Shown: positions 3,055 through 18,839 of the stretch, one piece after another
Position numbering within the stretch: position 1 is the stretch's first letter
Layout of the letters: each line of letters begins with the position of its first letter
Origin: a virus
Reading direction: 5' to 3' (one strand)
Virus record (IMG/VR): IMGVR_UViG_3300027857_000012
Coordinates: 1 to 64,000 of that record
DNA: 64,000 bases
Translations under genes and position numbers: made by a program
The notes under the pieces: generated by a model
The model's input: only the letters and a program-made list of their open reading frames with translations
What the model was told of the DNA's origin: nothing
Database searches by the model: none

Positions 3055-3093
3055 AGTGTGTGTTCCTTTCGTGTAGTTGTATTTTCTATTCTT

Positions 3094-3122: not shown

Positions 3123-3178
3123 TAGTTTTATCACGAATATGCATGAAATCGAATTATTCATGCATATTCGTCGAGTCT

Positions 3179-3544
3179 TTATGGAAGTGGATTTGACATC
3201 CACGTGAACAATTCGATAAGGAATGGCCCAAACTCTTCACCACGGAGTTCGAGAACATGCTCATACTGTGCACCAGGGCCCTCATCAGATGCTTCTTCGT
3301 ATGCTAGTTCTTCTTCAGTCAAAATGTATGTTCCGCTGTAGAGAGGCATCTCAGATTCACGAATAACACGAATCGTTAGTTTTGTTTCATATGCTTGTTC
3401 ACCGACACGTTTCAGGTAATATCGCGTATTTCGAAATGTGATAAGAGGATAATATTCGGGGCACGTGCCAGAATCAGAAACTTCATCAATGACCTCGTTG
3501 ATGCTTCGAATGAGTTTTTCAGTGTCTTGTGGCGTGATAAACAT
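3179..3544 (-). CDS. Small acidic protein of unknown function
   Basis: 121 residues. It has an N-terminal helix, then strands (LITFRNTRYYLKRV; TKLTIRVI), an acidic stretch (EEELAYEEASDEG), and a C-terminal helix (FGPFLIELFTWM). This helix-strand-helix outline recurs in several array proteins. CGAAAGGAATCACACG precedes the ATG. It is second in a unit with the gene at 3601-3882. No family recognised. Confidence 0.75.
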   Translation of the reverse strand: MFITPQDTEKLIRSINEVIDEVSDSGTCPEYYPLITFRNTRYYLKRVGEQAYETKLTIRVIRESEMPLYSGTYILTEEELAYEEASDEGPGAQYEHVLELRGEEFGPFLIELFTWMSNPLP

Positions 3545-3600
3545 CGTGTGATTCCTTTCGGGCCGATTTTTGAGTGAGAATCGGCAAGCTCATTTGTGTG

Positions 3601-3882
3601 CTATTGAGTGAGCTGTTGTACAATTTTTTCAATGAATGGATTTGTGCGCTCGAAATGCATGTGAAGTGTGCCTACAGGATACTCTGTGCCATCTGGCGAC
3701 ATTTCAAATTCTGTTTCACCTTGTGGGCACAAATCGATGTCGACACTTATTTCATCCTCTGCATTCCACAGTGATAATATAGTGTATCGTTTTGGCAGAC
3801 CGCATACTTGTTCAATGTCGACAAATGCTTGCTTGAATTCGAGATTCGCGTTTGCGTGTGCAATTTTGAGTGGTGAAATCAT
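3601..3882 (-). CDS. Small protein of unknown function
   Basis: 93 residues. An N-terminal helix is followed by strands (RYTILSLWNAEDEISVDI) and a C-terminal helix (NPFIEKIVQQLTQ). GAAAGGATCACACA precedes the ATG. First gene of a minus-strand unit driven from 3931-3959. No family recognised. Confidence 0.75.
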   Translation of the reverse strand: MISPLKIAHANANLEFKQAFVDIEQVCGLPKRYTILSLWNAEDEISVDIDLCPQGETEFEMSPDGTEYPVGTLHMHFERTNPFIEKIVQQLTQ

Positions 3883-3930
3883 TGTGTGATCCTTTCAAAT
3901 TTTTGAAATTACTTTTGAATTTCTATTAAT

Positions 3931-3959
3931 ATTATAACACAAAACGAGTCAAAAGTACA
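3931..3959 (-). promoter_or_regulatory. Array promoter, minus strand (genes 3882-3179)
   Basis: On the minus strand: TGTACT (3959-3954), 17-nt spacer, TATAAT (3936-3931) with a TGT extended -10. It is divergent from the plus promoter at 4187; the 227 bp between them hold no convincing gene. Confidence 0.85.
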
Positions 3960-4186
3960 TAGTTTTTACACGAGTTTTCAAGTTCGTGAAGAAATTCGTT
4001 GTTTCTGCATCATTTAAGTGAAATACGTATACTGCACACCAGAACAGCATGCATCCACGAAATGTAAGATTATATGTCCACTTTTCCAGCGCATTCCAAT
4101 ATGTGTTCAGAGGGCACACATTTCGATGTGAAATGAACGAATTTTTATTCATTTTTATATTTTCATCAAAATTCGTGCAAAAAGTA

Positions 4187-4215
4187 TGTACTTTTCCATG
4201 AAAACAAGTTATAAT
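4187..4215 (+). promoter_or_regulatory. Array promoter (gene 4285)
   Basis: TGTACT (4187-4192), 17-nt spacer, TATAAT (4210-4215). The -35 is embedded in a perfect palindrome, AAAAGTATGTACTTTT (4181-4196). Confidence 0.85.
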
Positions 4216-4284
4216 AAGTATAGAAATTGAATATACGAATTGAGAACATACTTCCTCAATTCGAAGAAAGAAAAGGAAATAAAA

Positions 4285-4995
4285 ATGACTACTCAGAACA
4301 CGACAACCACACCACGGACAAAGCTCACGACACCTGAGATGAATGCAGTACGCATTATGATGTCAGATCACTATTCAACCATTCACCAGTACGACGACTC
4401 GACGATGCAGATCTTTTATGCAAAACTCGGACATCTCACAGCGATGCTCGATGGCCAGATCCCATTCGAGGGCACTCCGTCTTACACACCACTGCCACAA
4501 CTCGAGGATGTGCCTGGGGAGCGTCTCTTCACACACAAATTTTATGCGAGACGTGATGATATGAGAGCACTCAAGATGGCTTTGCTCGACAACATGTGCC
4601 TCTTGCACATGCCACACACTATGACCACAACAGACCCTGCCATCATCTACTCGAGTGTCCGCAGTTCTGCTGCTGCCGCACTTCGCAGCTATGAAGCGAA
4701 TGCTTCGTTCATGCTGGGATTTAGCCGTCGCGAAGGCAAAGAGGAAGTTTTCCTCGTCAATCCATATCGCAGCACGACATCTGTCGAGACACAAGAGGAG
4801 GAGGCAGAAATGCCTTCCCTCGAAGAGACCATCGACGAAACATCAGACGAAATCGTTGAGCCAGAGACATTCGGAGATGTGCTTGAGAAAGATGACACAG
4901 AGGAGGAAGAGAGCGAAGACGAGTCATCTGTGCAGGAAATCGCACCACTCTACGAAGAAGAGCATGAAGACGATTCAGACCTGAGCGACGTCTAA
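4285..4995 (+). CDS. Array protein with highly acidic C-terminal tail; paralogue of 14555-15148
   Basis: 236 residues. The central part (about residues 45-110) contains FYAKLGHLTAMLDGQIPFEG, closely matching FYAKLGRLVAMMSGNIPFEG in the minus-strand gene at 14555-15148. The last ~70 residues are overwhelmingly Glu/Asp/Ser and probably disordered. The ATG at 4285 follows AAAAGGA and lies downstream of the predicted transcription start. Acidic tails of this kind occur in DNA-mimic and histone-like-protein-binding proteins, but that is only an analogy. A strong terminator follows. Confidence 0.8.
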   Translation: MTTQNTTTTPRTKLTTPEMNAVRIMMSDHYSTIHQYDDSTMQIFYAKLGHLTAMLDGQIPFEGTPSYTPLPQLEDVPGERLFTHKFYARRDDMRALKMALLDNMCLLHMPHTMTTTDPAIIYSSVRSSAAAALRSYEANASFMLGFSRREGKEEVFLVNPYRSTTSVETQEEEAEMPSLEETIDETSDEIVEPETFGDVLEKDDTEEEESEDESSVQEIAPLYEEEHEDDSDLSDV

Positions 4996-5008
4996 GACAC
5001 ATCCAAGA

Positions 5009-5043
5009 GAATCGACCAGTCGAAAGGCTGGTCGATTCTTCTT
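5009..5043 (+). terminator. Intrinsic terminator after gene 4285-4995
   Basis: GAATCGACCAG (5009-5019) pairs with CTGGTCGATTC (5028-5038), an 11-bp perfect stem with an 8-nt loop, followed by TTCTTT. Confidence 0.85.
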
Positions 5044-5093
5044 TGCGGGAATCAACGAGTTTTCTTCTTTATTTCAAATTCGTGTTAAAAGTA

Positions 5094-5122
5094 TGTACGT
5101 TCGATGCAAAACAGTGTATAAT
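5094..5122 (+). promoter_or_regulatory. Array promoter (genes 5169 and 5468)
   Basis: TGTACG (5094-5099), 17-nt spacer, TATAAT (5117-5122). Confidence 0.85.
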
Positions 5123-5168
5123 CTATTTAGAAGATAATTCAAATGCATCGTTGAAAGGATCACACATC

Positions 5169-5447
5169 ATGACACAAGAAAAAATCGGTCAAGCAGCCCT
5201 TATTCTCGAGCATCTCGCACTGAAGCGAAAAGCACCCCAGTTTCGCGGACTCCCAATCGTCGGGATCAAAGTGAAAGAAGGCACTCAGGATATTCCACAA
5301 GTGTTGCTCGTGTTGTACCATTTATCGTATCTCACCATGCCACCACTTGATCTTGGTGTCTGCTCAACATGGATTAAATTGCACGAAGATGGATGGTTCT
5401 GCATCACCGAATCTGAGCTTCGAAACTTGTACGATCAATTATCATAA
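5169..5447 (+). CDS. Small protein, tandem paralogue of the next gene
   Basis: 92 residues. The ATG at 5169 follows GAAAGGATCACACATC. It aligns over its whole length with the next gene: shared starts (MTQEKIGQAAL against MTRNDIRKAAL), a central I-K-V segment, TCTV/CSTW-like strands and a C-terminal E-L-LYDQLS / DLDSLFCQLP. Tandem duplication is the simplest reading. No known family. Confidence 0.8.
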   Translation: MTQEKIGQAALILEHLALKRKAPQFRGLPIVGIKVKEGTQDIPQVLLVLYHLSYLTMPPLDLGVCSTWIKLHEDGWFCITESELRNLYDQLS

Positions 5448-5467
5448 ACTTGAAAGGATCTCAGTAC

Positions 5468-5779
5468 ATGACACGAAACGATATTCGAAAAGCTGCTCTT
5501 ATTCAGAAACATCTTTTATCGAACACGATTCCATCACTCATCTATCGTCGTTCGTCGATTCACGAAATAAAAGTGATGCAAGGACACAGAGACATAGAAT
5601 CAGCGTTTCTCGCATGGTGTTATCAAGAAGCGCTGTTTCTCGACAAACTTGATCTAACGAAGTGTACAGTGTGGGTCAGATATCCAAATTATGAAGAAGA
5701 GAAGCATGATTGGATGCTGCTCACACAAGAAGATCTTGACTCTCTTTTCTGTCAACTGCCACATGTGTTCGCAGCATAG
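5468..5779 (+). CDS. Small protein, tandem paralogue of the previous gene
   Basis: 103 residues. The start at 5468 is chosen over an in-frame ATG 18 nt upstream because GAAAGGATCTCAGTAC precedes it. It is an N-terminal helix followed by strand-rich sequence and is the homologue of 5169-5447. It shares that gene's promoter; the gap of 20 nt holds only the ribosome site. Confidence 0.8.
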   Translation: MTRNDIRKAALIQKHLLSNTIPSLIYRRSSIHEIKVMQGHRDIESAFLAWCYQEALFLDKLDLTKCTVWVRYPNYEEEKHDWMLLTQEDLDSLFCQLPHVFAA

Positions 5780-5823
5780 ACTCAACGAATATTCTTGTTC
5801 GATGCGAATTCATCATAAAACAA

Positions 5824-5852
5824 TGTACATTCGCATCGAACTGTGATATAAT
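5824..5852 (+). promoter_or_regulatory. Array promoter with overlapping inverted repeat (genes 5897 and 6092)
   Basis: TGTACA (5824-5829), 17-nt spacer, TATAAT (5847-5852), extended -10 TGA. A perfect 13-bp inverted repeat (5797-5809 with 5829-5841, arm GTTCGATGCGAAT) places its right arm inside the spacer. Confidence 0.9.
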
Positions 5853-5896
5853 ATATTTAGATAAAGAAAATGACCATTCGAAAGGAATCACACACT

Positions 5897-6082
5897 ATGG
5901 CAAAACAGAAAAGTCTTTTAAAAACGAAAATGATCGCGCAGACAAAGACACACTACTTTTTGAAAACCGTCCTTATGATTTTCGTGATGCTTTTCGCAGT
6001 TGGGCACATTGTGTTTCAAACGATTGCGAAGGTTCTCGAGACACTGCATGACATCACGAAATCATACTATATGTCACTGTAG
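5897..6082 (+). CDS. Small membrane protein
   Basis: 61 residues: a basic N-terminus (MAKQKSLLKTKM), one hydrophobic segment (about residues 22-42, core TVLMIFVMLFAVGHIVF) and an amphipathic C-terminal helix. GAAAGGAATCACACACT precedes the ATG. It is 9 nt upstream of the next gene. No family recognised. Confidence 0.75.
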   Translation: MAKQKSLLKTKMIAQTKTHYFLKTVLMIFVMLFAVGHIVFQTIAKVLETLHDITKSYYMSL

Positions 6083-6091
6083 GAGGATGAT

Positions 6092-6445
6092 ATGTCTGTC
6101 TCAACAACAAAAATTTCATCAATGCCATATCGGAAACTCGCCAATGATCTTTGGGATGCTCGACTTGAATCTGGCAATCCATTGATCCCACTGACCATCG
6201 GAGAGACACAATTCGCTATTGTGTCTGTGTCTCTCGTCATCGTTGGACAAGAAGTCATGCCAGACGCATACGAAACAGATTGGCAACTTTATTATCCGAA
6301 TTCACTGTGTTGGAGAGTGACGTACCTTCCACTCGATGATTGGCAAAGTGATGATGTGCCATCGTATGCGAATCTCGGAATTCTCACATTGCCACATGCA
6401 TCGAAGATTCCATCTTTGTTGCTTGCGTACGTACACGCACAGTAG
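6092..6445 (+). CDS. Small protein of unknown function
   Basis: 117 residues, with alternating strands (TQFAIVSVSLVIVGQEV) and a tryptophan/tyrosine-rich middle (WQLYYPNSLCWRVTYLPL). AGGAGGATGAT precedes the ATG. Second gene of the unit with 5897-6082. No family recognised. Confidence 0.75.
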   Translation: MSVSTTKISSMPYRKLANDLWDARLESGNPLIPLTIGETQFAIVSVSLVIVGQEVMPDAYETDWQLYYPNSLCWRVTYLPLDDWQSDDVPSYANLGILTLPHASKIPSLLLAYVHAQ

Positions 6446-6499
6446 AGTCAACGAATATTGCTTTACTGTGCAAATAAAGCAATATTCGTGCTAAAACAA

Positions 6500-6528
6500 T
6501 GTACATCTACACGAATACGTGATATAAT
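6500..6528 (+). promoter_or_regulatory. Array promoter with upstream hairpin (genes 6567-7660)
   Basis: TGTACA (6500-6505), 17-nt spacer, TATAAT (6523-6528), extended -10 TGA. A perfect 14-bp stem (6452-6465 with 6475-6488, arm CGAATATTGCTTTA, 9-nt loop) ends 11 nt before the -35. Confidence 0.9.
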
Positions 6529-6566
6529 AGAACTAGAAAATACAAATTCGAATAGAGGAGCACACA

Positions 6567-6860
6567 ATGAAAACTGTCAAATCACCACAATTTGAAACCA
6601 TCGAGGATTTCAAGGCACTTGAGGGTGTCATCGCAATCGAGACACATCTCTACAGGATTGGCCCAATCTCATATCCTGCCTTTCTGAAAGCAAAAGAGCA
6701 ACTTGATACTGCTGTCAATGCGCTCAATGCTTGTTTTCTAACGAACAAGCATTTCGAAGCACTCTGCATGGAGTTTCCTTCCTACATGGTTCTCTGCGTC
6801 CGAGATACACGTAAGAATGTCTCGTACTTCGAGAAACTTGAGGAGGTGCCAAATGCCTAA
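6567..6860 (+). CDS. Small protein of unknown function
   Basis: 97 residues, mainly helical, with a Phe/Tyr-rich C-terminus. GAGGAGCACACA precedes the ATG. Its stop overlaps the next gene's start by 8 nt (ATGCCTAA), so the three genes of this unit are translationally coupled. No family recognised. Confidence 0.75.
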   Translation: MKTVKSPQFETIEDFKALEGVIAIETHLYRIGPISYPAFLKAKEQLDTAVNALNACFLTNKHFEALCMEFPSYMVLCVRDTRKNVSYFEKLEEVPNA

Positions 6861-7371
6861 CATCCGAAAACAGCGATACGAGCAGATACTTGCAAATAAT
6901 CGCCTCACGTGGAAGACGCTCCGTGGCATTGTGAGTAGCTTGAATCATCGAACAGATGACTTCTTTGATGACGAGACAGCAAAAGAAACGTGGCGAGGTG
7001 AAGACCCATATGTGTTCATGGAGAAGCGAATCATGTGCGCGCTTCGTCGACTGCACCTGTTACGTGTTCCTCTGCACTATGATATCAATCATCGTGCCTA
7101 TGTTGTTCGTGAAGAGTGCTATCATGTGCTCTTTGACGATATGCTTGAAGATGGCATCGAGAAAGTCAATGCGTTATACGATACGTGGGTCAATATGCGC
7201 AAAAGTGTTGCAAAAGAAACTGCTGAAAGCACCTATCTGAAAGCGCTCGAGCGTCTCGTCAGCGCATATCGAGACCAGATCTTCTTTTCAGAAGTTTTGC
7301 AACAATGGCAGATCCTCGAGAACGATGACGGCACGTGGCTCTCAGAACTTGACGAGGTGTTGCATGCCTAA
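6853..7371 (+). CDS. Helical protein of unknown function, coupled start
   Basis: 172 residues, almost entirely helical by composition, with many Trp and Arg residues. The start at 6853 follows GAGGAGGTGCCAA inside the end of the upstream gene; a longer frame upstream would overlap that gene far more. Its own stop overlaps the next gene in the same ATGCCTAA manner. No family recognised. Confidence 0.75.
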   Translation: MPNIRKQRYEQILANNRLTWKTLRGIVSSLNHRTDDFFDDETAKETWRGEDPYVFMEKRIMCALRRLHLLRVPLHYDINHRAYVVREECYHVLFDDMLEDGIEKVNALYDTWVNMRKSVAKETAESTYLKALERLVSAYRDQIFFSEVLQQWQILENDDGTWLSELDEVLHA

Positions 7372-7660
7372 TCGAGTCGTCCTTACTCGTCAACAATCCG
7401 TAATTCGGTTCGGGAATCCCTACGGGGATTCCATGAACATGTTTCTTCGAGTCCTCAATGGGCTTTGGCGTGCCAGAAAAGTGATCTGTGCAGAGCGCTA
7501 TCCAGAGGAAACACAAGAACTTGATCGGTGCATTAAAGCGGGCGTCGCATATCTCAGAGAACACGAGATCGCGAGACCATGGGAATTCAATAGTTTCACT
7601 GGATACTCGTTCAAAGATCTCAGTGAGTCAATGTGGGAGGGACACTGGTCGAACTTTTAA
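7364..7660 (+). CDS. Small basic protein of unknown function, coupled start
   Basis: 98 residues. The start at 7364 follows GACGAGGTG and overlaps the upstream stop by 8 nt. The N-terminus is basic (MPNRVVLTRQQSVIRFG) and the middle helical. It is the last gene of the unit; the next promoter begins about 55 nt later. No family recognised. Confidence 0.7.
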   Translation: MPNRVVLTRQQSVIRFGNPYGDSMNMFLRVLNGLWRARKVICAERYPEETQELDRCIKAGVAYLREHEIARPWEFNSFTGYSFKDLSESMWEGHWSNF

Positions 7661-7714
7661 AATTACCAATCAAAATGAATTTTCATAAAAGTACATATAT
7701 TCGTGCCAGAAGTA

Positions 7715-7743
7715 TGTACTTTTATACGAAAACATGATATAAT
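7715..7743 (+). promoter_or_regulatory. Array promoter with -35 inside an inverted repeat (genes 7783 and 8339)
   Basis: TGTACT (7715-7720), 17-nt spacer, TATAAT (7738-7743), extended -10 TGA. A perfect 13-bp inverted repeat (7685-7697 with 7713-7725, arm ATAAAAGTACATA, 15-nt loop) contains the -35 in its right arm. Confidence 0.9.
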
Positions 7744-7782
7744 ATATTTGTAAAGTTCAAATAAATTGAAAGGAAAATCCAA

Positions 7783-8289
7783 ATGATTCAAAACCGAAAA
7801 GAACAACTTCACAAGAAATTGCATCAAATTTACGAAAATGGCGCTGGAAGAACAGAAGGTATCATTGATAGTCTGCTGCAAGAATCATTTCTTGGCCACA
7901 TCTACTTTATTCATGGCATAGGTGAAACAATAGAATATCCACCTTGTGAAGAGTGGGATACGAATGATAAAGACTACACTCTTGTCAAATTTGGACTCTA
8001 TCAAGAAGGTAATGGTTGCATTGAAATATTCTCTGTCCCAGTCTCGACAAAAGTGCTCAATGACATTGCCACTCGTATCGACGCAGCGTACTATCACTGG
8101 ATGCAGCGAGAGCCACAAAGCGTAAAACGGGACAATCCGTTCGACTATTATCGAACACTGTTCAATGTCACGATTGAATGCACGTATGATATGAATGAGC
8201 GTGAATTCGGTCGACTCTCTCCACAATCTCAACAGGCAGTGATCGAAGACGCTGAGCGATTCGCGTTTCTGCCACCAAAAGACGTGTAG
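7783..8289 (+). CDS. Unknown protein of the small-gene array
   Basis: 168 residues. A helical N-terminus is followed by strands, then a helix ending in a WMQREP segment and a Tyr-rich DYYRTLFNV region. GAAAGGAAAATCCAA precedes the ATG. First gene of its unit. No family recognised. Confidence 0.8.
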   Translation: MIQNRKEQLHKKLHQIYENGAGRTEGIIDSLLQESFLGHIYFIHGIGETIEYPPCEEWDTNDKDYTLVKFGLYQEGNGCIEIFSVPVSTKVLNDIATRIDAAYYHWMQREPQSVKRDNPFDYYRTLFNVTIECTYDMNEREFGRLSPQSQQAVIEDAERFAFLPPKDV

Positions 8290-8304
8290 TTTTTCGAAAG
8301 GCTT

Positions 8305-8329
8305 TGAGCATGTGCCTTAAACATGCTCA
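8305..8329 (+). promoter_or_regulatory. Hairpin between two genes of one unit
   Basis: TGAGCATGT (8305-8313) pairs with ACATGCTCA (8321-8329), a perfect 9-bp stem with a 7-nt loop. It touches the AGGAG ribosome site of the gene at 8339 and has no T-run, so translational control or mRNA stabilisation is more likely than termination. Confidence 0.55.
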
Positions 8330-8338
8330 GGAGCAATC

Positions 8339-8827
8339 ATGGCGAAATTTACAAAAGAACAAATCGATTTGATTACTGCACATATTGACGAAGCACATAA
8401 AAACAATCAACGGGTTTGTCTTGGTCTCTCGATGAATAACCTGTATGGTATGGAAGAAGGCACTGAATACTGTTACATTGATAAACCGAACGAGAATGAA
8501 CCCAATTCCATCACTGTGTATCCTGTTGATTGGTACATGGAAGGGAACATCCGAGAACTGCTCTATGATGATAGTCTGTCATTCGGATTAGAACATATGA
8601 CGCAAGATGAGATCAATGTGTTTGTACGCGAGACCATCGATCCGATTCATCTTCTTGACGTACAACTTGTTGTTAAGTGTATGTATGATGGTGAAACGCC
8701 AGAAACGGCTGATTACATGCAGGTTTCTATTCGGGCAAAGAGAGAAGCACTCCCTCGTCAATATGTCGCTATTCTTGCATTCGATCAAACAAAAAATGCG
8801 TATGTTACTGTCGCTTCACATGCATAG
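8339..8827 (+). CDS. Unknown acidic protein of the small-gene array
   Basis: 162 residues, acidic. The N-terminal helix (FTKEQIDLITAHIDEAHK) resembles those of other array proteins, and the C-terminal part is strand-like (YVAILAFDQTKNAYVTV). CAGGAGCAATC precedes the ATG, just after a hairpin. No family recognised. Confidence 0.8.
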   Translation: MAKFTKEQIDLITAHIDEAHKNNQRVCLGLSMNNLYGMEEGTEYCYIDKPNENEPNSITVYPVDWYMEGNIRELLYDDSLSFGLEHMTQDEINVFVRETIDPIHLLDVQLVVKCMYDGETPETADYMQVSIRAKREALPRQYVAILAFDQTKNAYVTVASHA

Positions 8828-8872
8828 GAGTCAATGAACGTATCGAATGTACATATATTCGTGTTAAAAGTA

Positions 8873-8901
8873 TGTACATTCGATACAAAACAATATATAA
8901 T
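8873..8901 (+). promoter_or_regulatory. Array promoter with -35 inside a 16-bp inverted repeat (gene 8942)
   Basis: TGTACA (8873-8878), 17-nt spacer, TATAAT (8896-8901). A perfect 16-bp inverted repeat (8840-8855 with 8871-8886, arm GTATCGAATGTACATA) has a 15-nt loop, the same length as at 7715. Confidence 0.9.
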
Positions 8902-8941
8902 TTATTTAGAAGAACAAATACAAATTTGAAAGGACCATTCC

Positions 8942-9589
8942 ATGACAGATTACATTACACCAGAACGCTTTGAAGTTGCTCAAAAAGAATTGAGGCAATT
9001 GTACGAGGAGAAACGCCCACTGCCCATTGTTTACTTCAATCAGCAAAAGCTCCAGTTGCTTAGTTTTTGGCAAAACCCGAGTGAAGATGGGCGGCATGTT
9101 TGGATTTTCGCAACAGCGCCAGAGAGTCCGCTCGTGTTTCAAAGTCCATTGCACGACCGACCTATTGGATACACCGAACATGATCTCACAATGCCGCAAG
9201 ACTACTCGGTACTCGACTGGATTCTGAGTGCCATCTCATATGCGCTCCGTGGCCCAGATCTTGATCTTGTCTGGATCATCGAACAGTACGAAAACATCAA
9301 TGCCGTCTCACTCGAAGGAGAGAACTGGCTTGATCAGATTCAAGACAAGGAGAAAGTTGCAAAGGTTCGTGACATCCTCGCGCACCGAGACCTCTATTCA
9401 ATCGGCAACGTCAGTGATCGAATAATCAAATCTGCAACTGGCCGAGTCGTTCGAAAACACGGAACAATCACTGACGTGATTCGAGCACATGGCGTAACAT
9501 TTGGCTACTTCCAAAGTCATGTCGGAGCCCCAAAACGACTTGCGAAACTTGCTGATGACGATGGATGTTGGTACATCACGATCGAATAG
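8942..9589 (+). CDS. Unknown protein of the small-gene array
   Basis: 215 residues, one of the longest in the array. The N-terminal half has helix-strand alternation (LQLLSFWQNP; HVWIFATAPES). The C-terminal half is basic and ends with a possible DNA-binding-like segment (SATGRVVRKHGTITDVIRAH), though no defined fold was recognised. GAAAGGACCATTCC precedes the ATG. It is the only gene of its unit. Confidence 0.8.
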   Translation: MTDYITPERFEVAQKELRQLYEEKRPLPIVYFNQQKLQLLSFWQNPSEDGRHVWIFATAPESPLVFQSPLHDRPIGYTEHDLTMPQDYSVLDWILSAISYALRGPDLDLVWIIEQYENINAVSLEGENWLDQIQDKEKVAKVRDILAHRDLYSIGNVSDRIIKSATGRVVRKHGTITDVIRAHGVTFGYFQSHVGAPKRLAKLADDDGCWYITIE

Positions 9590-9634
9590 AGTCAACGAAT
9601 AATCTGAAATCCATTGAATTCGTCATGAAAACTA

Positions 9635-9663
9635 TGTACATTCAATGGATTTCATGATATAAT
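9635..9663 (+). promoter_or_regulatory. Array promoter with inverted repeat across the -35 (genes 9702-10400)
   Basis: TGTACA (9635-9640), 17-nt spacer, TATAAT (9658-9663), extended -10 TGA. Perfect 15-bp inverted repeat 9605-9619 with 9640-9654 (arm TGAAATCCATTGAAT); its right arm fills most of the spacer. Confidence 0.9.
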
Positions 9664-9701
9664 ATATTTAGAAAATACAAATTCGAAAGGAAATACCACA
9701 C

Positions 9702-10070
9702 ATGCATCCAACAACCGTTCTTGAAAGTCTCAATACGATTATCACTGAACTCTCCGATGGAGGCATTGAATTCGAACGATTGCCAAAATTCTTTTATCGA
9801 GGCGGTGGATCAGCATTCATTTTCCAGGTTCTTGCCATCGACGAAAAAGAAGTGACATTCATGATCGTTTCGAGTTGGGACAGATACAGATCACGTCTTG
9901 TCTCTGCACGAAAATGTCTTTATGACACGATGACAGTGCAAGAATATCAAGATATTGTATGCACCATTTCTGGCACGATGTCAATCACGATCGAAACCTG
10001 GAATACCGTCATGCTTCCACAATTCATCGCTCTTGCGGTGAATCACATGCAACGTCGAACGGAGCGATGA
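9702..10070 (+). CDS. Small protein of unknown function
   Basis: 122 residues. It follows the recurring array outline: N-terminal helix (ESLNTIITELSDGG), strands (FFYRGGGSAFIFQVLAI; VTFMIVSSWD), then a C-terminal helix. GAAAGGAAATACCACAC precedes the ATG. First of three genes. No family recognised. Confidence 0.8.
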   Translation: MHPTTVLESLNTIITELSDGGIEFERLPKFFYRGGGSAFIFQVLAIDEKEVTFMIVSSWDRYRSRLVSARKCLYDTMTVQEYQDIVCTISGTMSITIETWNTVMLPQFIALAVNHMQRRTER

Positions 10071-10074
10071 ATTA

Positions 10075-10302
10075 ATGTCGAACATACTATCACCATTCGA
10101 GCAGGAGCTCCTCGACCAGCGAAAAGAGAAACTGCTGCACTGGGCGAATAGTCTTCTCGGAACGAGGATTCGAATGCGAGGACGCCCCGACGGCGCAAAG
10201 ATTATTCAATATGAGCTTGGAACACACCTTAATGGCATCTGGGTCGCATTCGAAAATGAAGCATATACTCGATACTTAAAATACAAAGGAGAACAAGAAT
10301 GA
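10075..10302 (+). CDS. Small protein of unknown function
   Basis: 75 residues: a basic helical N-terminal half (FEQELLDQRKEKLLHWANSL) and a short strand-rich C-terminal half. CGGAG lies about 10 nt before the ATG, only 4 nt after the previous stop. It overlaps the next small gene by 4 nt (ATGA). Confidence 0.7.
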   Translation: MSNILSPFEQELLDQRKEKLLHWANSLLGTRIRMRGRPDGAKIIQYELGTHLNGIWVAFENEAYTRYLKYKGEQE

Positions 10303-10400
10303 CTCGTGAACAATCAATTGCCCATTTCGGCCACCCATTCGAATACACTCGGGTATTGTTATACCAACATGGAACTCTATGGCGGTTGGAAAGACCTTGA
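10299..10400 (+). CDS. 33-residue microprotein, coupled start
   Basis: A 33-codon frame whose ATG overlaps the previous stop as ATGA and is preceded by AAAGGAGAACAAG. It is aromatic and basic (YTRVLLYQHGTLWRLERP at the C-terminus). The coupling and the strong ribosome site support translation; conservation would be needed for proof. A terminator follows 25 nt later. Confidence 0.5.
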   Translation: MTREQSIAHFGHPFEYTRVLLYQHGTLWRLERP

Positions 10401-10424
10401 GTATAAGTAGAATCATCTTCATGA

Positions 10425-10460
10425 AATCGATAGCATGCAATGTGCTATCGATTGTTGTTT
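10425..10460 (+). terminator. Terminator after the 9702-10400 unit
   Basis: AATCGATAGCA (10425-10435) pairs with TGCTATCGATT (10443-10453), an 11-bp perfect stem with a 7-nt loop followed by GTTGTTT. Confidence 0.75.
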
Positions 10461-10501
10461 CTACGAATATTTCACAATGCGCCAAATTCACATCAAAATG
10501 A

Positions 10502-10530
10502 TGTACTTTTCCTTCTTTTTATGTTATAAT
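10502..10530 (+). promoter_or_regulatory. Array promoter whose spacer pairs with the ribosome site (genes 10568 and 10810)
   Basis: TGTACT (10502-10507), 17-nt spacer, TATAAT (10525-10530), extended -10 TGT. A perfect 17-bp inverted repeat joins 10506-10522 (spacer) to 10548-10564, which contains the AAGAAGGAAAAG ribosome site of gene 10568. Confidence 0.9.
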
Positions 10531-10567
10531 TATCTTAGATAATTCAAATAAAAAGAAGGAAAAGTTG

Positions 10568-10798
10568 ATGAATGCTCGAATCACAACAGCACTGCTCGAA
10601 AGTCCAGATCCGATGACCACACAGGTCGTTACCAGTATTTTAGAAGAGCCTCTCTTTGCAGAAGGATCACTCGAACGCACAGACTTCTGTCAACAAATTG
10701 AGTGCATGCTCGATTATGGCTATGACATCACCACAGATTTGATCATGCGTATCTACCAAGTCGTCGCGATTACGTGGCAACAGCCACAGGCATTCTAA
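10568..10798 (+). CDS. Small acidic protein of unknown function
   Basis: 76 residues, helical. The ATG at 10568 is preferred over the in-frame TTG one codon upstream, given AAGGAAAAG at normal spacing. The ribosome site lies in the right arm of the inverted repeat described for the promoter. No family recognised. Confidence 0.7.
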   Translation: MNARITTALLESPDPMTTQVVTSILEEPLFAEGSLERTDFCQQIECMLDYGYDITTDLIMRIYQVVAITWQQPQAF

Positions 10799-10809
10799 GG
10801 AGGAAAATA

Positions 10810-11085
10810 ATGCCAAAATACATTCGTCCATTTCCTGCATGCGCAAAAGTCGGAAAAGTTGCAAGAGGGAAACACCAAGGCAAATATGAACAATGGAGCA
10901 TGTGTGGAAGTAAGAATTCACTAAAACGATTCGCCGGCATTCCATTCTACATTATTAAACGAACTGCTGAAGATACGGCTGGCTACGCTTATACAACTCG
11001 GGAAGAAGCAGAAAATGATCTTGCATTTTGGCACTGCACAATTATCGAGGAATTGACACTCACGGCTGATCAAATCGTTCGATAA
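10810..11085 (+). CDS. Small basic protein of unknown function
   Basis: 91 residues, with a basic N-terminal third (YIRPFPACAKVGKVARGKHQ) and a helical, acidic C-terminal end. AAGGAGGAAAATA precedes the ATG, 11 nt after the upstream stop. A YTTREEAENDLAFW segment resembles the strand-helix end of small phage proteins that carry residue-modifying or WGR-like folds, but this is not enough for a call. Confidence 0.75.
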   Translation: MPKYIRPFPACAKVGKVARGKHQGKYEQWSMCGSKNSLKRFAGIPFYIIKRTAEDTAGYAYTTREEAENDLAFWHCTIIEELTLTADQIVR

Positions 11086-11132
11086 AAGAATCAACGAATA
11101 ATGATGAAAGTATAATATTCACATCAAAACTA

Positions 11133-11161
11133 TGTATTTTCATCATTATTCGTGATATAAT
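11133..11161 (+). promoter_or_regulatory. Array promoter with inverted repeat filling the spacer (genes 11203-12202)
   Basis: TGTATT (11133-11138), 17-nt spacer, TATAAT (11156-11161), extended -10 TGA. Perfect 15-bp inverted repeat 11095-11109 with 11138-11152 (arm CGAATAATGATGAAA). Confidence 0.9.
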
Positions 11162-11202
11162 CTATTTAGAAATACAAATTCAATACACAAAGGAAAACAC
11201 GT

Positions 11203-11616
11203 ATGCTACTTCAACAAACGACTGCATTTCAAAAAGTTCAAGAAATTTACATTCGTCAAGAGTCGCAACAGCCTGGTGGAAATACACTCGGAGAAAACAT
11301 TCTTCCATTCATGTATGATGGTAAGAAATATACACTCTGGAGCATTAATCTTACCACCGAGACAAATGACAATCCGCTCGCTATCGACCCCGACGAATTT
11401 GATTTCGATCCTCTCTTTAATTGTGAAGACGAAGATGAGGATTTCAACCCAGACGTGCAAGAATCAGATCTTCATCTTGTCATCTGCCCAGCAAATGCAG
11501 AGAGGGATGGAGATGCGCATAAGCGGTTCATCCTGCCAATTGACGATCCTCTACTCGATCAACTGCTCGACACTGCCAGAGTACAATGGCCGAATCTCGA
11601 CGACCTCACACAATAA
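11203..11616 (+). CDS. Small acidic protein of unknown function
   Basis: 137 residues: an N-terminal helix, a strand pair around FMYDGKKYTLWSINL, then a very acidic middle (FNCEDEDEDFNPDVQESD) and a C-terminal helix. AAAGGAAAACACGT precedes the ATG. First of a possible three-gene unit. No family recognised. Confidence 0.8.
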   Translation: MLLQQTTAFQKVQEIYIRQESQQPGGNTLGENILPFMYDGKKYTLWSINLTTETNDNPLAIDPDEFDFDPLFNCEDEDEDFNPDVQESDLHLVICPANAERDGDAHKRFILPIDDPLLDQLLDTARVQWPNLDDLTQ

Positions 11617-11661
11617 GAAATCGAGTTGCAGGATCTCGCCAAAACCTGCAAAGGAATAGAA

Positions 11662-12039
11662 ATGCTCACACATGAACTTTTGAAACAACTCGAAACAAAA
11701 CATGATGATACGTATGATCACCATACTGTGATTCCTGTCATCTACAAAAATGCGCTCTACTACATTTTCGACGCTGACCCTGTCTCGTTTGCCATCACAT
11801 CTGCTGCTGCGACTCTCTATGGTGATGATGAAGAACAACTCTACGAGGATGATGATATTCTCTCATATGAACTTGCCGATGTCTCGACAGATATCTCGCA
11901 TAAAGACGCAGAACGAATTGTCAACCAAGCGTTGTTGAGTACACCTCGCCCATGTAGAACGTTCAAACTGTTTCAGGAGCATGAGCTCAACTATTATATC
12001 GTGTCGATTATCGAGGTTGATGTCCCTGATGTTCGATGA
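11662..12039 (+). CDS. Small acidic protein of unknown function
   Basis: 125 residues. The start at 11662 follows AAAGGAATAGAA; the longer frame from 11626 has no ribosome site. Like the preceding gene it has an N-terminal helix, a strand (VIYKNALYYIFDA) and an acidic loop (YGDDEEQLYEDDDILSYE), so distant paralogy is possible. Confidence 0.75.
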   Translation: MLTHELLKQLETKHDDTYDHHTVIPVIYKNALYYIFDADPVSFAITSAAATLYGDDEEQLYEDDDILSYELADVSTDISHKDAERIVNQALLSTPRPCRTFKLFQEHELNYYIVSIIEVDVPDVR

Positions 12040-12202
12040 TTCGTCCACTCCTTCAAGGCTTGATGAAGATGTTCTCAAGCCTATTTTTATGCCCTCTGAA
12101 CACATATTCGAGGACCAAATGAACATGGATGATAGAATATATGTCCATGGCCAGATGATGTCGTTCCAGTTTCAATGCATTTCTTCTTTTGTTCGAAAAT
12201 AA
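12029..12202 (+). CDS. Possible small gene overlapping the previous stop
   Basis: 57 residues. The ATG at 12029 lies inside the end of the previous gene, with GAGG about 12 nt upstream, and the frame ends exactly where the next promoter's -35 begins. The product is methionine-rich. Supporting signals are weak; it could be an unused frame. Confidence 0.4.
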   Translation: MFDDSSTPSRLDEDVLKPIFMPSEHIFEDQMNMDDRIYVHGQMMSFQFQCISSFVRK

Positions 12203-12231
12203 TATACTTTTATCAACAATTATGATATAAT
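12203..12231 (+). promoter_or_regulatory. Array promoter, divergent -35 (genes 12284 and 12472)
   Basis: TATACT (12203-12208), 17-nt spacer, TATAAT (12226-12231), extended -10 TGA. No long inverted repeat seen here. Confidence 0.75.
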
Positions 12232-12283
12232 TATGTTACGAAATGCAAAATAAATTTCATGTAAATTCAGAAAGGATTATCAA

Positions 12284-12463
12284 ATGCTTCCGCATCTTGG
12301 CCAATTTCTCAATTCGACATTTGGATTTCTCCTTTTAGGAGTGATCATCGTACTTGGATGTTTGTCGTTCATCTTTAGCGTTCGTTCACGTGTTGGCGTC
12401 GGGATCGTCCTGATCCTCGTTCTCGTTGGCATCGGCGGATCGATGTGGCTCTTCGGCCGATAG
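12284..12463 (+). CDS. 59-residue two-span membrane protein
   Basis: Two hydrophobic segments (about residues 13-33 and 38-59) joined by a short basic SVRSRVGV loop, giving a hairpin topology. AGAAAGGATTATCAA precedes the ATG. It is immediately followed by a second small two-span protein whose TAGGAGACGAC ribosome site overlaps this stop, so the two are probably made together. A holin/antiholin or membrane-stress role is possible but unsupported. Confidence 0.75.
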   Translation: MLPHLGQFLNSTFGFLLLGVIIVLGCLSFIFSVRSRVGVGIVLILVLVGIGGSMWLFGR

Positions 12464-12471
12464 GAGACGAC

Positions 12472-12642
12472 ATGCTGCTTCTGACACCACTGCTCATCTC
12501 ACAAATGCTTATGGGTCTTGGCGCGATCATTTTTGGTGCACTTGTTGCCGCCATGATGTATGCCTTGTCGAAATCGGCGCATCTCGCGCTCGTGACAGGG
12601 ATTGTTCTTGGAGCACTCGTGCTCTTCATCGTCATCTCATAG
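12472..12642 (+). CDS. 56-residue two-span membrane protein
   Basis: Two hydrophobic segments with a KSAH turn between them, and essentially no soluble domain. TAGGAG precedes the ATG, and the gene is 8 nt after its companion at 12284. The longer in-frame ATG at 12445 would overlap the companion and lacks a ribosome site. No family recognised. Confidence 0.75.
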   Translation: MLLLTPLLISQMLMGLGAIIFGALVAAMMYALSKSAHLALVTGIVLGALVLFIVIS

Positions 12643-12686
12643 ATTCAATGAATATCACGTTCTCACATATATTCGTGCTAAAACAA

Positions 12687-12715
12687 TGTACATTTGTGTG
12701 AGAACGTGATATAAT
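12687..12715 (+). promoter_or_regulatory. Array promoter with 16-bp inverted repeat reaching into the -10 (gene 12757)
   Basis: TGTACA (12687-12692), 17-nt spacer, TATAAT (12710-12715), extended -10 TGA. A perfect 16-bp inverted repeat (12652-12667 with 12697-12712, arm ATATCACGTTCTCACA) covers most of the spacer and the first half of the -10. Confidence 0.9.
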
Positions 12716-12756
12716 ACAACTAGATCGAATAAATACAACATGAAAGAAGAAGATAA

Positions 12757-13011
12757 ATGACCACTCAACAAATCGCCGATTACAATGCATATCTCGCAAC
12801 ACTCACTCCGGGTGAATTGCAAGGACTAATCGATGAACTCACAGAATACGCAAAAGGAAATGCCGAAATGTCCGAATCTGCACGCAACAACGAATCGCAC
12901 GCATGGTATTATGCATCTGCTACCGACTACGACCATGAAGAGCAACTCGCACTTGAACGTGCAGCACTTGCTCGTGCAGAACTGATTCGACCGAAAACAG
13001 CGAACGCATAA
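12757..13011 (+). CDS. Small helical acidic protein of unknown function
   Basis: 84 residues, rich in Ala, Glu and Tyr, and predicted nearly all helical (TPGELQGLIDELTEYAKG; HEEQLALERAALARAEL). GAAAGAAGAAGATAA precedes the ATG. No family recognised. Confidence 0.75.
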   Translation: MTTQQIADYNAYLATLTPGELQGLIDELTEYAKGNAEMSESARNNESHAWYYASATDYDHEEQLALERAALARAELIRPKTANA

Positions 13012-13035
13012 AACCAGATCATGCTGTTGAGTCCA

Positions 13036-13055
13036 TGTCAGTTCATGTCAGTTCA
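13036..13055 (+). repeat. Two tandem 10-bp repeats (TGTCAGTTCA)
   Basis: Two exact copies of TGTCAGTTCA, sharing the CAGTTCA core of the four-unit array at 1431-1470. They lie in the 148-bp gap before the gene at 13160, which has no array promoter, so an alternative regulatory site is possible. Confidence 0.65.
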
Positions 13056-13159
13056 CTTTATATCCGGGTCAGCATGTTCCGTACAATGTGAGCAATCACC
13101 GCATCAAGAGGGCATTTCTGCCCCGGAAGATTCAGAAAAATAGCAGAAAGGACATACCA

Positions 13160-13483
13160 ATGAAAATTCAACATCTCTCAAACGAACATCTTCTCGTTCG
13201 ATTCCTTGCTCGATATGTAAAACTCTTTGAATCAACAGACACTGGAACAATCGTCACATTTAACGTTCTCTTCGATCAACAAGAGTTGTTTTTCATCGAA
13301 ACGAAGATACGTGCATGTGCAGAAATACTTTTGGCACCACTCGCAACAGCGCAGACAATGACGCAAGAAAACATTATAACGATTTCTGAAACACATCCTG
13401 CATACGGCAATGTTCTTGCACAACTCTGCTCTGCGAAACCTCTCTTTATTCCTCGAATGATCGTACAAACGGCAACCCCGTAA
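13160..13483 (+). CDS. Small protein of unknown function
   Basis: 107 residues. The ATG at 13160 follows GAAAGGACATACCA. Helix-strand-helix outline: N-terminal helix (HLLVRFLARYVKLFES), strands (GTIVTFNVLFDQQELFFIE), and a C-terminal Pro-containing segment. It lies before a terminator and a convergent junction. Confidence 0.75.
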   Translation: MKIQHLSNEHLLVRFLARYVKLFESTDTGTIVTFNVLFDQQELFFIETKIRACAEILLAPLATAQTMTQENIITISETHPAYGNVLAQLCSAKPLFIPRMIVQTATP

Positions 13484-13503
13484 CCAGATCTCTGGACTCC
13501 GTG

Positions 13504-13537
13504 AAGGACGATGCCGAGTGTGTCGTCCTTTCTTTTC
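13504..13537 (+). terminator. Terminator after gene 13160-13483
   Basis: AAGGACGA (13504-13511) pairs with TCGTCCTT (13523-13530), followed by TCTTTTC. The 11-nt loop contains GCCGAG, the core of the GC-rich junction elements. Confidence 0.75.
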
Positions 13538-13562
13538 GTGATTGCCAAGAAGTGTGTACGCA

Positions 13563-13645
13563 GCCCAGGACCGAGCACACATCACAAAACAGTTCCTTCA
13601 CTCGATGCGTCACTTCGCCGCCTGCCAGGGCCGAGGATGCACATG
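13563..13645 (+). other. GC-rich convergent-junction elements, copies 3 and 4
   Basis: GCCCAGGACCGAGCACAC (13563-13580) and GCCAGGGCCGAGGATGCAC (13624-13642) repeat the core of the elements near 1902 and 2095. Confidence 0.5.
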
Positions 13646-13775
13646 TAAAAGAGGCATAGACACATTGGGGTGAGCATGCATACGTTGAACACAGCACACA
13701 TGTGCGAGACTCAAGCATATGCAAAATGCACTTTCATGCTCATGCATATATGCATTTTAAACACATTTTGGACAT

Positions 13776-13811
13776 CAAAAATGCTTTGACATATATTTCA
13801 ATGTCAAAGCA
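13776..13811 (-). terminator. Terminator of the minus-strand unit 14380-13843
   Basis: TGCTTTGACAT (13782-13792) pairs with ATGTCAAAGCA (13801-13811), an 11-bp perfect stem. On the minus strand it is followed by TTTTTGATG. Confidence 0.8.
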
Positions 13812-13842
13812 GAAGATAGACGAGAACGCATTTGAGGATGTG

Positions 13843-14058
13843 CTACGACACTTGCTGTACTCGTGCTTGGAGTGTCGCGAGAAGGACCTGAAACACATCT
13901 TCGTGGAGTTGGTAAAATTTGCTTGTGTCGAAACAGTACTCACCACCGCCGCCCTCGTAGCATCCACATCCACAATGATACTCGCCAAATTCATCAATCC
14001 AGTCGTCATAATCTCTCGACTCATAGTCTGTGTAATCGAGTGTGTATATGTTTAACAT
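13843..14058 (-). CDS. Cysteine- and tyrosine-rich acidic microprotein
   Basis: 71 residues. The start at 14058 follows AGAAAGGAATCACACCG; an upstream in-frame ATG has no ribosome site. The middle is Asp/Tyr-rich and contains a tight cysteine cluster (HCGCGCYEGGGGEYC), which could bind a metal. Second gene of its unit. No family recognised. Confidence 0.7.
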   Translation of the reverse strand: MLNIYTLDYTDYESRDYDDWIDEFGEYHCGCGCYEGGGGEYCFDTSKFYQLHEDVFQVLLATLQARVQQVS

Positions 14059-14074
14059 CGGTGTGATTCCTTTC

Positions 14075-14380
14075 TTACTTGTCATATCGACCCATATAAG
14101 CACTCAGTGTCATGTGGTTGAGTGCTGCCTCAACGACCTCAGATGTGTAATTTTTTCGACCGTGGTATTTCGTCCCGACCCAATATGGAACGGCTGCGTC
14201 CTGGTTTTCATCCAGGTATGCAAAGGCGATAGTGTTATATTCATCATACGTGATGACCTGGGTGAGATAGGCACGATATGCTTCGAACACGTGCTTACTA
14301 TTCGATTTAATTCGAATGCGTTTTCCGTTCACGTCGAGTGTGAAGAACGTTGGTTGTGTGACTGTGGTGAGTTTCTTCAT
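14075..14380 (-). CDS. Small basic protein of unknown function
   Basis: 101 residues: strands at the N-terminus (FFTLDVNGKRIRIKS), then helices. GAAGGAGAAACCACA precedes the ATG. First gene after the promoter at 14423-14451, 16 nt from the next gene. No family recognised. Confidence 0.75.
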   Translation of the reverse strand: MKKLTTVTQPTFFTLDVNGKRIRIKSNSKHVFEAYRAYLTQVITYDEYNTIAFAYLDENQDAAVPYWVGTKYHGRKNYTSEVVEAALNHMTLSAYMGRYDK

Positions 14381-14422
14381 TGTGGTTTCTCCTTCATATA
14401 TTTTTATTTAACTCTTATTTAT

Positions 14423-14451
14423 ATTATATATTGTTTTGTGTGAAATGTACA
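14423..14451 (-). promoter_or_regulatory. Array promoter, minus strand (genes 14380-13843)
   Basis: On the minus strand: TGTACA (14451-14446), 17-nt spacer, TATAAT (14428-14423). Upstream is a 9-bp inverted repeat, 14463-14471 with 14481-14489 (CGAATATTT). Confidence 0.85.
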
Positions 14452-14521
14452 TAGTTTCAACACGAATATTTATGATTTCGAAATATTCGTTGAAATTCGT
14501 GCACACATCCTCAACACACAC

Positions 14522-14547
14522 ATCGAGGAGGATTGCTCCTCCTCGAT
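14522..14547 (-). terminator. Hairpin after gene 15148-14555
   Basis: ATCGAGGAGGA (14522-14532) and TCCTCCTCGAT (14537-14547) form an 11-bp GC-rich stem with a TTGC loop, 8 nt downstream of the minus-strand stop. On the minus strand there is no T-run, so it may be an atypical terminator. Confidence 0.6.
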
Positions 14548-14554
14548 CGTTTTA

Positions 14555-15148
14555 TTATTCGATTTCTGATGTTTCTGATGTGATTTCGGGTGCTTGCTCC
14601 TCCACATCCTCGGAGGACACTTGCGTGTCCTCTTCCACTGTTCCAAAATTCACAATTTCAGGATTTTTTCCACGAGACTTCACGATGGTGAGTGCCGTGA
14701 ATATATCACGATTGTTCTCGAAACACCTCAGAGCGGCAGTTTCGGTCAAGTGATTAACGGAAAACCGAAGTGTTGTTTCGGAAAAATGCATTCCGTGTGC
14801 ATCGTGGATCAATTGCAAATTTTGCCTCAGTGCACCCTTAGCATGTCGCAGATGCTCATTTTTCGCGAAGAAAAAGCAGAGGTATTCTTTCGCGCCGACC
14901 TTCTCTTTTAACGGAGGAAGTGTCTGGTATGCAGGCTTGCCCTCAAATGGAATGTTCCCAGACATCATTGCGACGAGACGACCAAGTTTTGCATAGAATT
15001 GATCAAGTGTCTCTGGTGTGTATCCAGAAAATGTCATCCAGTGATCACTGATCATGATTTCGAGCCATCGTTTTGTTTGTGCTGTCACGACATGTTTTGG
15101 TGCTTGCTCTTCGGTAGTGACTTCTGATGTGTTTTCGATGTTTTCCAT
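14555..15148 (-). CDS. Array protein with acidic tail; paralogue of 4285-4995
   Basis: 197 residues. The core (about residues 30-115) matches the plus-strand gene at 4285: FYAKLGRLVAMMSGNIPFEG here, with a shared P-AYQTLPPL / P-SYTPLPQL segment and a following helical part. The C-terminal ~35 residues are again Glu/Ser-rich. GAAAGAAGAATCACACA precedes the ATG. The two copies sit in opposite orientations about 10 kb apart. The family is unknown to me. Confidence 0.8.
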   Translation of the reverse strand: MENIENTSEVTTEEQAPKHVVTAQTKRWLEIMISDHWMTFSGYTPETLDQFYAKLGRLVAMMSGNIPFEGKPAYQTLPPLKEKVGAKEYLCFFFAKNEHLRHAKGALRQNLQLIHDAHGMHFSETTLRFSVNHLTETAALRCFENNRDIFTALTIVKSRGKNPEIVNFGTVEEDTQVSSEDVEEQAPEITSETSEIE

Positions 15149-15220
15149 TGTGTGATTCTTCTTTCTTTGTTTGATTTTCGTTTTTTGTTTTTGAAGTTTT
15201 GTTATTCAACTTCTAAGTAT

Positions 15221-15249
15221 ATTATAACATGTTTTATGTGGAAAGTACA
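15221..15249 (-). promoter_or_regulatory. Array promoter, minus strand (gene 15148-14555)
   Basis: On the minus strand: TGTACT (15249-15244), 17-nt spacer, TATAAT (15226-15221), extended -10 TGT. Confidence 0.85.
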
Positions 15250-15346
15250 TACTTTTTACACGAATTTCGATGAATTTGGAAATATGTGGAAAACTCGTCT
15301 TTCACACATAAAAATCATTTTTCACCACAATAAAACTTTTTCTTCA

Positions 15347-15380
15347 CATAAAAGAAGCATCCACACGAATATGGATGCTT
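15347..15380 (-). terminator. Terminator after gene 15565-15398
   Basis: AAGCATCCA (15355-15363) pairs with TGGATGCTT (15372-15380); on the minus strand the stem is followed by CTTTTATG. Confidence 0.7.
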
Positions 15381-15397
15381 GTGTAGTGAAATGTGAA

Positions 15398-15565: not shown

Positions 15566-15612
15566 TGTGTGATTCTCCTTCGTGGAAATTTGTATTTTCA
15601 ATTTCTAAGTAT

Positions 15613-18778: not shown

Positions 18779-18839
18779 TGCTTACCTCAACGAATATTCA
18801 CGAATTCGTATAAACTCGTGAATATTCGTGTAAAAACAA

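What the first reader, a model, noticed from the sequence alone, without database searches (positions are those of the whole stretch)
5797..12712. Unit-specific perfect inverted repeats overlap the promoters
In at least ten units, inverted repeats of 9-17 bp surround or precede the promoter. In six (5797, 7685, 8840, 9605, 11095, 12652) the right arm covers the -35, spacer or part of the -10. Arm sequences differ completely between units yet remain perfectly complementary, which implies selection on pairing. Possible roles: DNA cruciform control, a terminator for read-through RNA that ends exactly at the next promoter, or hairpin promoters like those of N4 virion polymerase.
Basis: partly seen in the sequence, partly recalled or inferred. 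Interest (0 to 1): 0.85.

Follow-up and report, generated by a model that had tools for sequence, protein, structure and literature searches.

The report
Terminator hairpins fused into phage promoters
In an uncultivated bacterial virus, many small gene units start at promoters whose middle is also one arm of an RNA hairpin that most likely ends the preceding gene's message, a space-saving promoter-terminator fusion like one known in T4-type phages but folded around a different part of the promoter.

Summary
All six named inverted repeats are at the stated coordinates. Arms of 9 bp or more pair the -35/-10 spacer with upstream DNA in 9 of 44 promoters of this phage (0.98 expected from cross-unit pairings) and 9 of 31 in a related phage (0.67 expected; permutation p < 0.0002 each). 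Pairing is kept while sequence is not.

The hairpins track transcription arriving from upstream. In the gene arrays, 31 of 36 promoters behind a co-directional unit have a hairpin (embedded, just upstream, or a stand-alone terminator), against 2 of 10 divergent promoters (p = 0.0002). Embedded hairpins never coincide with a stand-alone terminator. The stop-codon-to-TATAAT distance rises with type: median 68, 80 and 121 nt.

N4-type hairpin promoters are not supported; DNA cruciforms are unlikely.

Closest known kind: PeSL promoter-terminator cassettes of T4-type phages. I found such hairpins inside promoters of phage RB49, but around the -10 or within the spacer; here they enclose the -35. Termination itself is inferred: only about half the right arms here meet a U-rich tract.

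The parts
5797..5841 (+). Embedded hairpin: arms 5797-5809 and 5829-5841 (13 bp perfect); promoter ATGTAC 5823-5828, TGATATAAT 5844-5852
7685..7725 (+). Embedded hairpin: arms 7685-7697 and 7713-7725 (13 bp perfect); ATGTAC 7714-7719, TATAAT from 7738
8840..8886 (+). Embedded hairpin: arms 8840-8855 and 8871-8886 (16 bp perfect); ATGTAC 8872-8877, TATAAT from 8896
9605..9654 (+). Embedded hairpin: arms 9605-9619 and 9640-9654 (15 bp perfect); ATGTAC 9634-9639, TATAAT from 9658
11094..11153 (+). Embedded hairpin: arms 11094-11112 and 11135-11153 (19 bp, one G.U); TATAAT from 11156
12652..12712 (+). Embedded hairpin: arms 12652-12672 and 12692-12712 (21 bp, 90%); right arm reaches into the -10 (TATAAT from 12710)
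6451..6489 (+). Class A hairpin just upstream of promoter 6523: arms 6451-6465 and 6475-6489 (15 bp perfect)
3133..3171 (-). Class A hairpin upstream of minus-strand promoter 3099: 15-bp perfect arms
18790..18829 (+). Class A hairpin upstream of promoter 18863: 14-bp arms
10505..10565 (+). Unit 10525: spacer pairs with the 5' UTR (18 bp perfect), right arm covers the ribosome-binding site, -10 lies in the loop (the RB49-like geometry)
5009..5038 (+). Stand-alone intrinsic terminator before promoter 5117 (no embedded hairpin there)
10425..10453 (+). Stand-alone intrinsic terminator before promoter 10525
12056..12082 (+). Stand-alone intrinsic terminator before promoter 12226 (no embedded hairpin there)

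Best explanation
The inverted repeats are composite terminator-promoter modules. A small unit ends with its stop codon; typically 8-17 nt later, RNA that has read on folds a hairpin whose 3' arm is transcribed from the spacer between the -35-like ATGTAC box and the extended -10 of the next unit's promoter. The hairpin forms the 3' end of the upstream mRNA (by intrinsic or hairpin-assisted termination) at the point where the next promoter starts its own RNA. Stem sequence is free as long as it pairs, so arms differ between units; what is shared is the promoter core, part of which lies in the loop. Units with more room use a hairpin just upstream of the promoter or an ordinary terminator. Shown: pairing beyond chance in two phages, preferred geometry, dependence on upstream co-directional transcription, mutual exclusion with stand-alone terminators. 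Inferred: RNA 3' ends at these hairpins and the way they arise.
For: Pairing beyond chance in both phages; native read-through RNA folds more stably than cross-unit chimeras, 0 of 5000 permutations. Left arm mostly at about -53 to -39 from the -10 in both phages. No embedded-hairpin promoter has a stand-alone terminator (0/14) against 17/44 of the other co-directional promoters, p = 0.0055. Read-through hairpins are stronger at co-directional than divergent promoters (median -18.4 vs -13.3 kcal/mol, p = 0.0005; significant in this phage alone, not in G001 alone); in the arrays 31/36 vs 2/10 have any hairpin, p = 0.0002. Stop codon to TATAAT: median 68 nt embedded, 80 upstream hairpin, 121 stand-alone terminator; embedded vs stand-alone p = 0.007. 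In relative G001 several stems run into U-rich tails, e.g. TTTCAATGG+TTTTGTTG and TTTTAGCAC+TTTTATAG. In relative L086 strong terminators sit directly against the -35. T4-type phage RB49 builds hairpins inside its early promoters too.
Against: In this phage about half the embedded stems (5847, 7738, 8896, 12710) lack a clear U-rich tail, and most loops are 14-29 nt, long for intrinsic terminators. G.U versus A.C mismatches do not point to RNA once the proper null is used (32 of 46, expected 62%, p = 0.17). Two divergent promoters (123064; G001 36414) also carry one. Ten co-directional promoters at 83-131 kb have no hairpin of the three kinds. No transcript data; host unknown.
Confidence: 0.62

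Rival explanations
1. RNA hairpins for processing or protection rather than termination: RNase III or another nuclease cuts read-through RNA at the hairpin, or the hairpin shields the 3' end of the upstream mRNA after trimming or Rho-dependent termination.
For: Same RNA-level evidence; explains stems without a U tract such as 5847 and 12710. Structure-specific recognition tolerates any stem sequence.
Against: Stems of 9-21 bp are short for RNase III; in G001 and L086 U-rich tails point to termination; mutual exclusion with true terminators suggests the same job.
Confidence: 0.2
2. DNA-level role: cruciform or single-strand hairpin at the promoter, or a dyad bound by a protein, controls initiation.
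For: The right arm lies inside the promoter; dyad axes cluster at -33, -28 and -23, in 5-bp steps.
Against: Mostly absent at divergent promoters with the same core; unit-specific arms exclude one common protein; the 5-bp steps are also seen weakly in cross-unit controls and follow the 10-bp phased A/T tracts; loops of about 20 nt disfavour cruciforms.
Confidence: 0.1
3. Read-through RNA hairpins that control translation or mask signals, as unit 10525 suggests, so that genes are translated only from their own promoter.
For: 10525: an 18-bp stem hides the ribosome-binding site only in read-through RNA.
Against: In all embedded class B units neither arm reaches the ribosome-binding site; spacer-downstream pairing is not above chance in G001.
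Confidence: 0.04
4. By-product of a mutational process (template switching that perfects quasi-palindromes) without function.
For: Could make perfect arms of arbitrary sequence.
Against: Does not predict dependence on upstream gene direction, exclusion with terminators, or the same position in two diverged phages.
Confidence: 0.04

Closest known systems
PeSL cassettes (promoter-early stem-loops, composite promoter-terminator motifs) of T4-type phages RB49/phi1 (Arbiol et al. 2010, doi 10.1093/gbe/evq006; Comeau et al. 2014, doi 10.1093/gbe/evu129; papers not held, known here from citing papers and from memory)
   Same: Sigma70-like early promoters repeated ahead of small genes of unknown function, with hairpins built into promoter DNA and stem sequence differing between copies (RB49: GGGAGATTC.., GGGGATC.., GGGAGTAT.., TGCGGTTAT..). 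Unit 10525 here has an RB49-like geometry, with the -10 in the loop.
   Different: In the RB49 stretch examined, arms lie in the spacer and just after the -10, or both inside the spacer, and are G+C-rich. Here arms usually lie upstream of the -35 and in the spacer, so the -35-like box is in the loop, and stems are more A+T-rich. Terminase and portal are not T4-type. Promoter core TGTACA-N17-TATAAT instead of TTGACA-N16/17-TATAAT.
Ordinary intrinsic terminators next to promoters
   Same: Many units in the same arrays use them; relative L086 has them abutting the -35.
   Different: The embedded form shares its 3' arm with the promoter, has a long loop and often lacks the U tract.
Phage N4 virion RNA polymerase hairpin promoters (from memory)
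   Same: Hairpin at a promoter.
   Different: No conserved stem, sigma70-type core, no hairpin at many promoters of the class.

Membership tests
PeSL-type composite promoter-terminator | Sigma70-like promoter repeated many times ahead of small, mostly unique genes | tested here: met
   49 promoters in this genome, 31 in G001, none in reversed sequence; ten array proteins scanned, none with a convincing Pfam match
PeSL-type composite promoter-terminator | Stem-loop overlapping the promoter, pairing beyond chance | tested here: met
   RB49 as positive control, 8 of 24 promoters with stems of 7 bp or more vs 0.87 in shuffles
PeSL-type composite promoter-terminator | Stem-loop acts as a transcription terminator | not testable with these tools
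   only indirect support
PeSL-type composite promoter-terminator | Same geometry as RB49 (hairpin around the -10 or inside the spacer) | tested here: not met
   Spacer-versus-downstream pairing only in 10525 and weakly in 87849; none above chance in G001
PeSL-type composite promoter-terminator | Recombination between copies shuffles genes | tested here: inconclusive
   One pair of identical 57-bp upstream blocks at separate places in G001
PeSL-type composite promoter-terminator | Carried by a T4-type phage | tested here: not met
   Terminase and portal match other families; no near DNA match among phages
N4 virion RNA polymerase promoter | Conserved short stem and loop sequence | tested here: not met
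   Stems share no sequence
N4 virion RNA polymerase promoter | Phage encodes a giant virion RNA polymerase | tested here: inconclusive
   Largest protein (1555 aa) is a tail protein, 1159-aa protein without match; PF00940 search empty, but its controls did not ring either
Intrinsic terminator | Stem followed by a U-rich tract | tested here: inconclusive
   Mostly met in G001, in about half of the stems of this phage

The most novel reading that the evidence does not exclude
The fusion is a relay: RNA polymerase that ends transcription on the embedded hairpin stays on the DNA and restarts at the promoter it is standing on, so that one polymerase can work through a chain of separate short messages. 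Single-molecule work shows that RNA polymerase usually stays on DNA after termination and can restart nearby (PMC6978322, PMC11347151); overlapping the two signals would exploit this.
Probability: 0.12. Interest if true: 0.75.

Novelty: new variant of a known kind. Interest (0 to 1): 0.45.

Why it matters
It suggests that merging a terminator into the next promoter is not peculiar to T4-type phages: an unrelated, uncultivated phage group has it with a different geometry (the -35 box rather than the -10 in the loop) and a different promoter core, which hints at independent origin. It yields a testable rule: a hairpin only where a co-directional unit lies upstream, and the closer the stop codon, the deeper the hairpin sits in the promoter. 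It also explains how arms can differ completely between units and still pair perfectly.

Tried and rejected
G.U versus A.C mismatches as an RNA-versus-DNA test: suggestive by eye, but gone against the cross-unit null. Five-bp steps of the dyad axes as evidence for a DNA-binding dimer: probably a consequence of the 10-bp phased A/T tracts. Rfam search of the window: nothing. Host: two genome-collection scans found nothing; terminase and DNA polymerase hits are all below 60% identity and spread over many hosts. Further relatives: G006 overlaps G001 with the same 11 promoter spacers and adds no new units; the 80-kb relative G017 lacks this promoter class, so compensatory changes between close relatives could not be followed. 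The loose promoter pattern in viral contigs mostly returned unrelated phages with a similar core. The original PeSL papers are not held. Sigma70 region 2 search of this phage: none.

Full report
WHERE IT IS. The window is bases 1-64000 of a 134,001-bp phage record; the rest was fetched. It has no near DNA match among sequenced phages. Terminase and portal families mark a tailed phage without close cultured relatives, with 18 tRNA genes. A position matrix built on both genomes finds 49 promoters here and 31 in a related 40.9-kb contig, IMGVR_UViG_3300033475_001489 (called G001), and none in reversed sequence. In the 63 promoters that seeded the matrix the distance from the start of ATGTAC to the start of TATAAT is always 24 bp. 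G001 shares the head genes (33-80% protein identity) but few of the small array genes.

THE OBSERVATION. Comparing each promoter's spacer with its own upstream DNA, with the upstream DNA of every other promoter as control, gives stems of 9 bp or more in 9/44 against 0.98 expected here and in 9/31 against 0.67 in G001; no permutation of 5000 reached the observed score in either genome. Read-through RNA from -72 to the -10 folds more stably than cross-unit chimeras. Sixteen promoters form the embedded class B (10 here, 6 in G001). A second class (A) pairs ACGAAT-type DNA with ATTCGT-type DNA just upstream of the promoter, extended by unit-specific bases: 15 bp at 3099 and 6523, 14 bp at 18863 (permutation p < 0.0002 here, 0.011 in G001). 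One unit, 10525, pairs its spacer with its own 5' UTR over 18 bp, including the ribosome-binding site.

WHAT IT TRACKS. If the hairpins served the promoter as DNA, they should be found at divergent promoters too. Mostly they are not. In the arrays (this genome below 20 kb, G001 above 17 kb) 31 of 36 promoters preceded by a co-directional promoter have an embedded hairpin, an upstream hairpin or a stand-alone terminator, against 2 of 10 divergent ones (p = 0.0002). Over all promoters it is 39/58 against 3/16 (p = 0.001). Embedded hairpins and stand-alone terminators exclude each other (0/14 against 17/44, p = 0.0055). Classes A and B compete for the same DNA, so their mutual exclusion carries no weight. 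The distance from the upstream stop codon to TATAAT is 68 nt (median) for embedded hairpins, 80 for upstream hairpins and 121 for stand-alone terminators. The hairpin thus follows the stop codon closely in all three kinds, and what varies is how far it overlaps the promoter. I read this as a hairpin that belongs to the end of the upstream message.

ORTHOLOGOUS PAIRS. The gene behind promoter 3099(-) matches the gene behind G001 27843(-) (32% identity, E 9e-6). The first has a 15-bp class A hairpin, the second a 13-position class B stem with one G.U pair, of unrelated sequence. The pair 16410 / G001 18591 is divergent in both phages and has no hairpin in either. This fits the rule but is only two cases.

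MECHANISM. In G001 stems typically run into U-rich spacer DNA (TTTTGTTG, TTTTATAG), as intrinsic terminators do. In this phage this holds for 71846, 101092 and 116866 and more weakly for 9658 and 11156; 5847, 7738, 8896 and 12710 have no clear U tract. Termination is therefore inferred, and hairpin-guided processing or protection of the 3' end is the main rival. In relative L086 long stems with U runs sit directly against the -35, a possible intermediate. For 10525, RNA from its own promoter holds only the right arm and leaves the ribosome-binding site free, while read-through RNA hides it (inference from sequence).

COMPARISON. I examined 50 kb of T4-type phage RB49. Several early promoters have hairpins inside them, for example TTGACA-GGGGATCGGTGATCCCC-TATACT and AAGGGAGATTC-TCTATAAT-GGGAGTCTCCC-TTTTC: 8 of 24 promoters with stems of 7 bp or more, against 0.87 in shuffles. 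These are evidently the published PeSL cassettes. Citing papers name them promoter early stem loops, or composite promoter-terminator motifs, that mediate gene shuffling; that terminator activity was reported is from memory, as the originals are not held. The principle is shared; the geometry, promoter core and phage lineage differ. Hence a new variant of a known kind, not a member.

CAVEATS. Class thresholds were set after looking at the data. ORF ends and terminators are computed calls. No transcript data exist and the host is unknown. Phased A/T tracts complicate any reading of the 5-bp axis steps.

Noticed in passing
G000 120901-122091 (L013:16901-18091 +): Full-length nitric oxide synthase oxygenase domain (PF02898, E 5.7e-161; best PDB match 2flq) with the RCIG haem-cysteine region conserved. 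In the phage collection only two Staphylococcus records match, at about 46% identity. A phage-borne NOS would be notable.
   Followed up: partly
window 3000-19000 and G001: A/T tracts upstream of the promoters are phased at 10 bp (autocorrelation peaks at lags 10 and 20, troughs near 5 and 15), suggesting intrinsically curved DNA.
   Followed up: partly
L013:5126-7474 + and L013:7477-8232 +: 782-aa protein with a Ser/Thr protein kinase domain (PF00069, E 1e-41), followed by a CAAX protease (Rce1-like) domain protein.
   Followed up: no
L011:9103-17330: 18 tRNA genes, one with a four-base anticodon call (ggga).
   Followed up: no
G001 23439(+) and 35250(-): Identical 57-bp promoter-upstream blocks at two separate places with different spacers, a sign of promoter duplication or shuffling.
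   Followed up: partly
L012:16032-17024 +: Tyrosine integrase (PF00589, E 8e-20): the phage may be temperate.
   Followed up: no
L024, L025, L036, L064 and others: Viral contigs with no apparent relation use a TATGTAC-TATAAT promoter core of similar spacing several times per contig, hinting at a widespread -35 variant.
   Followed up: no
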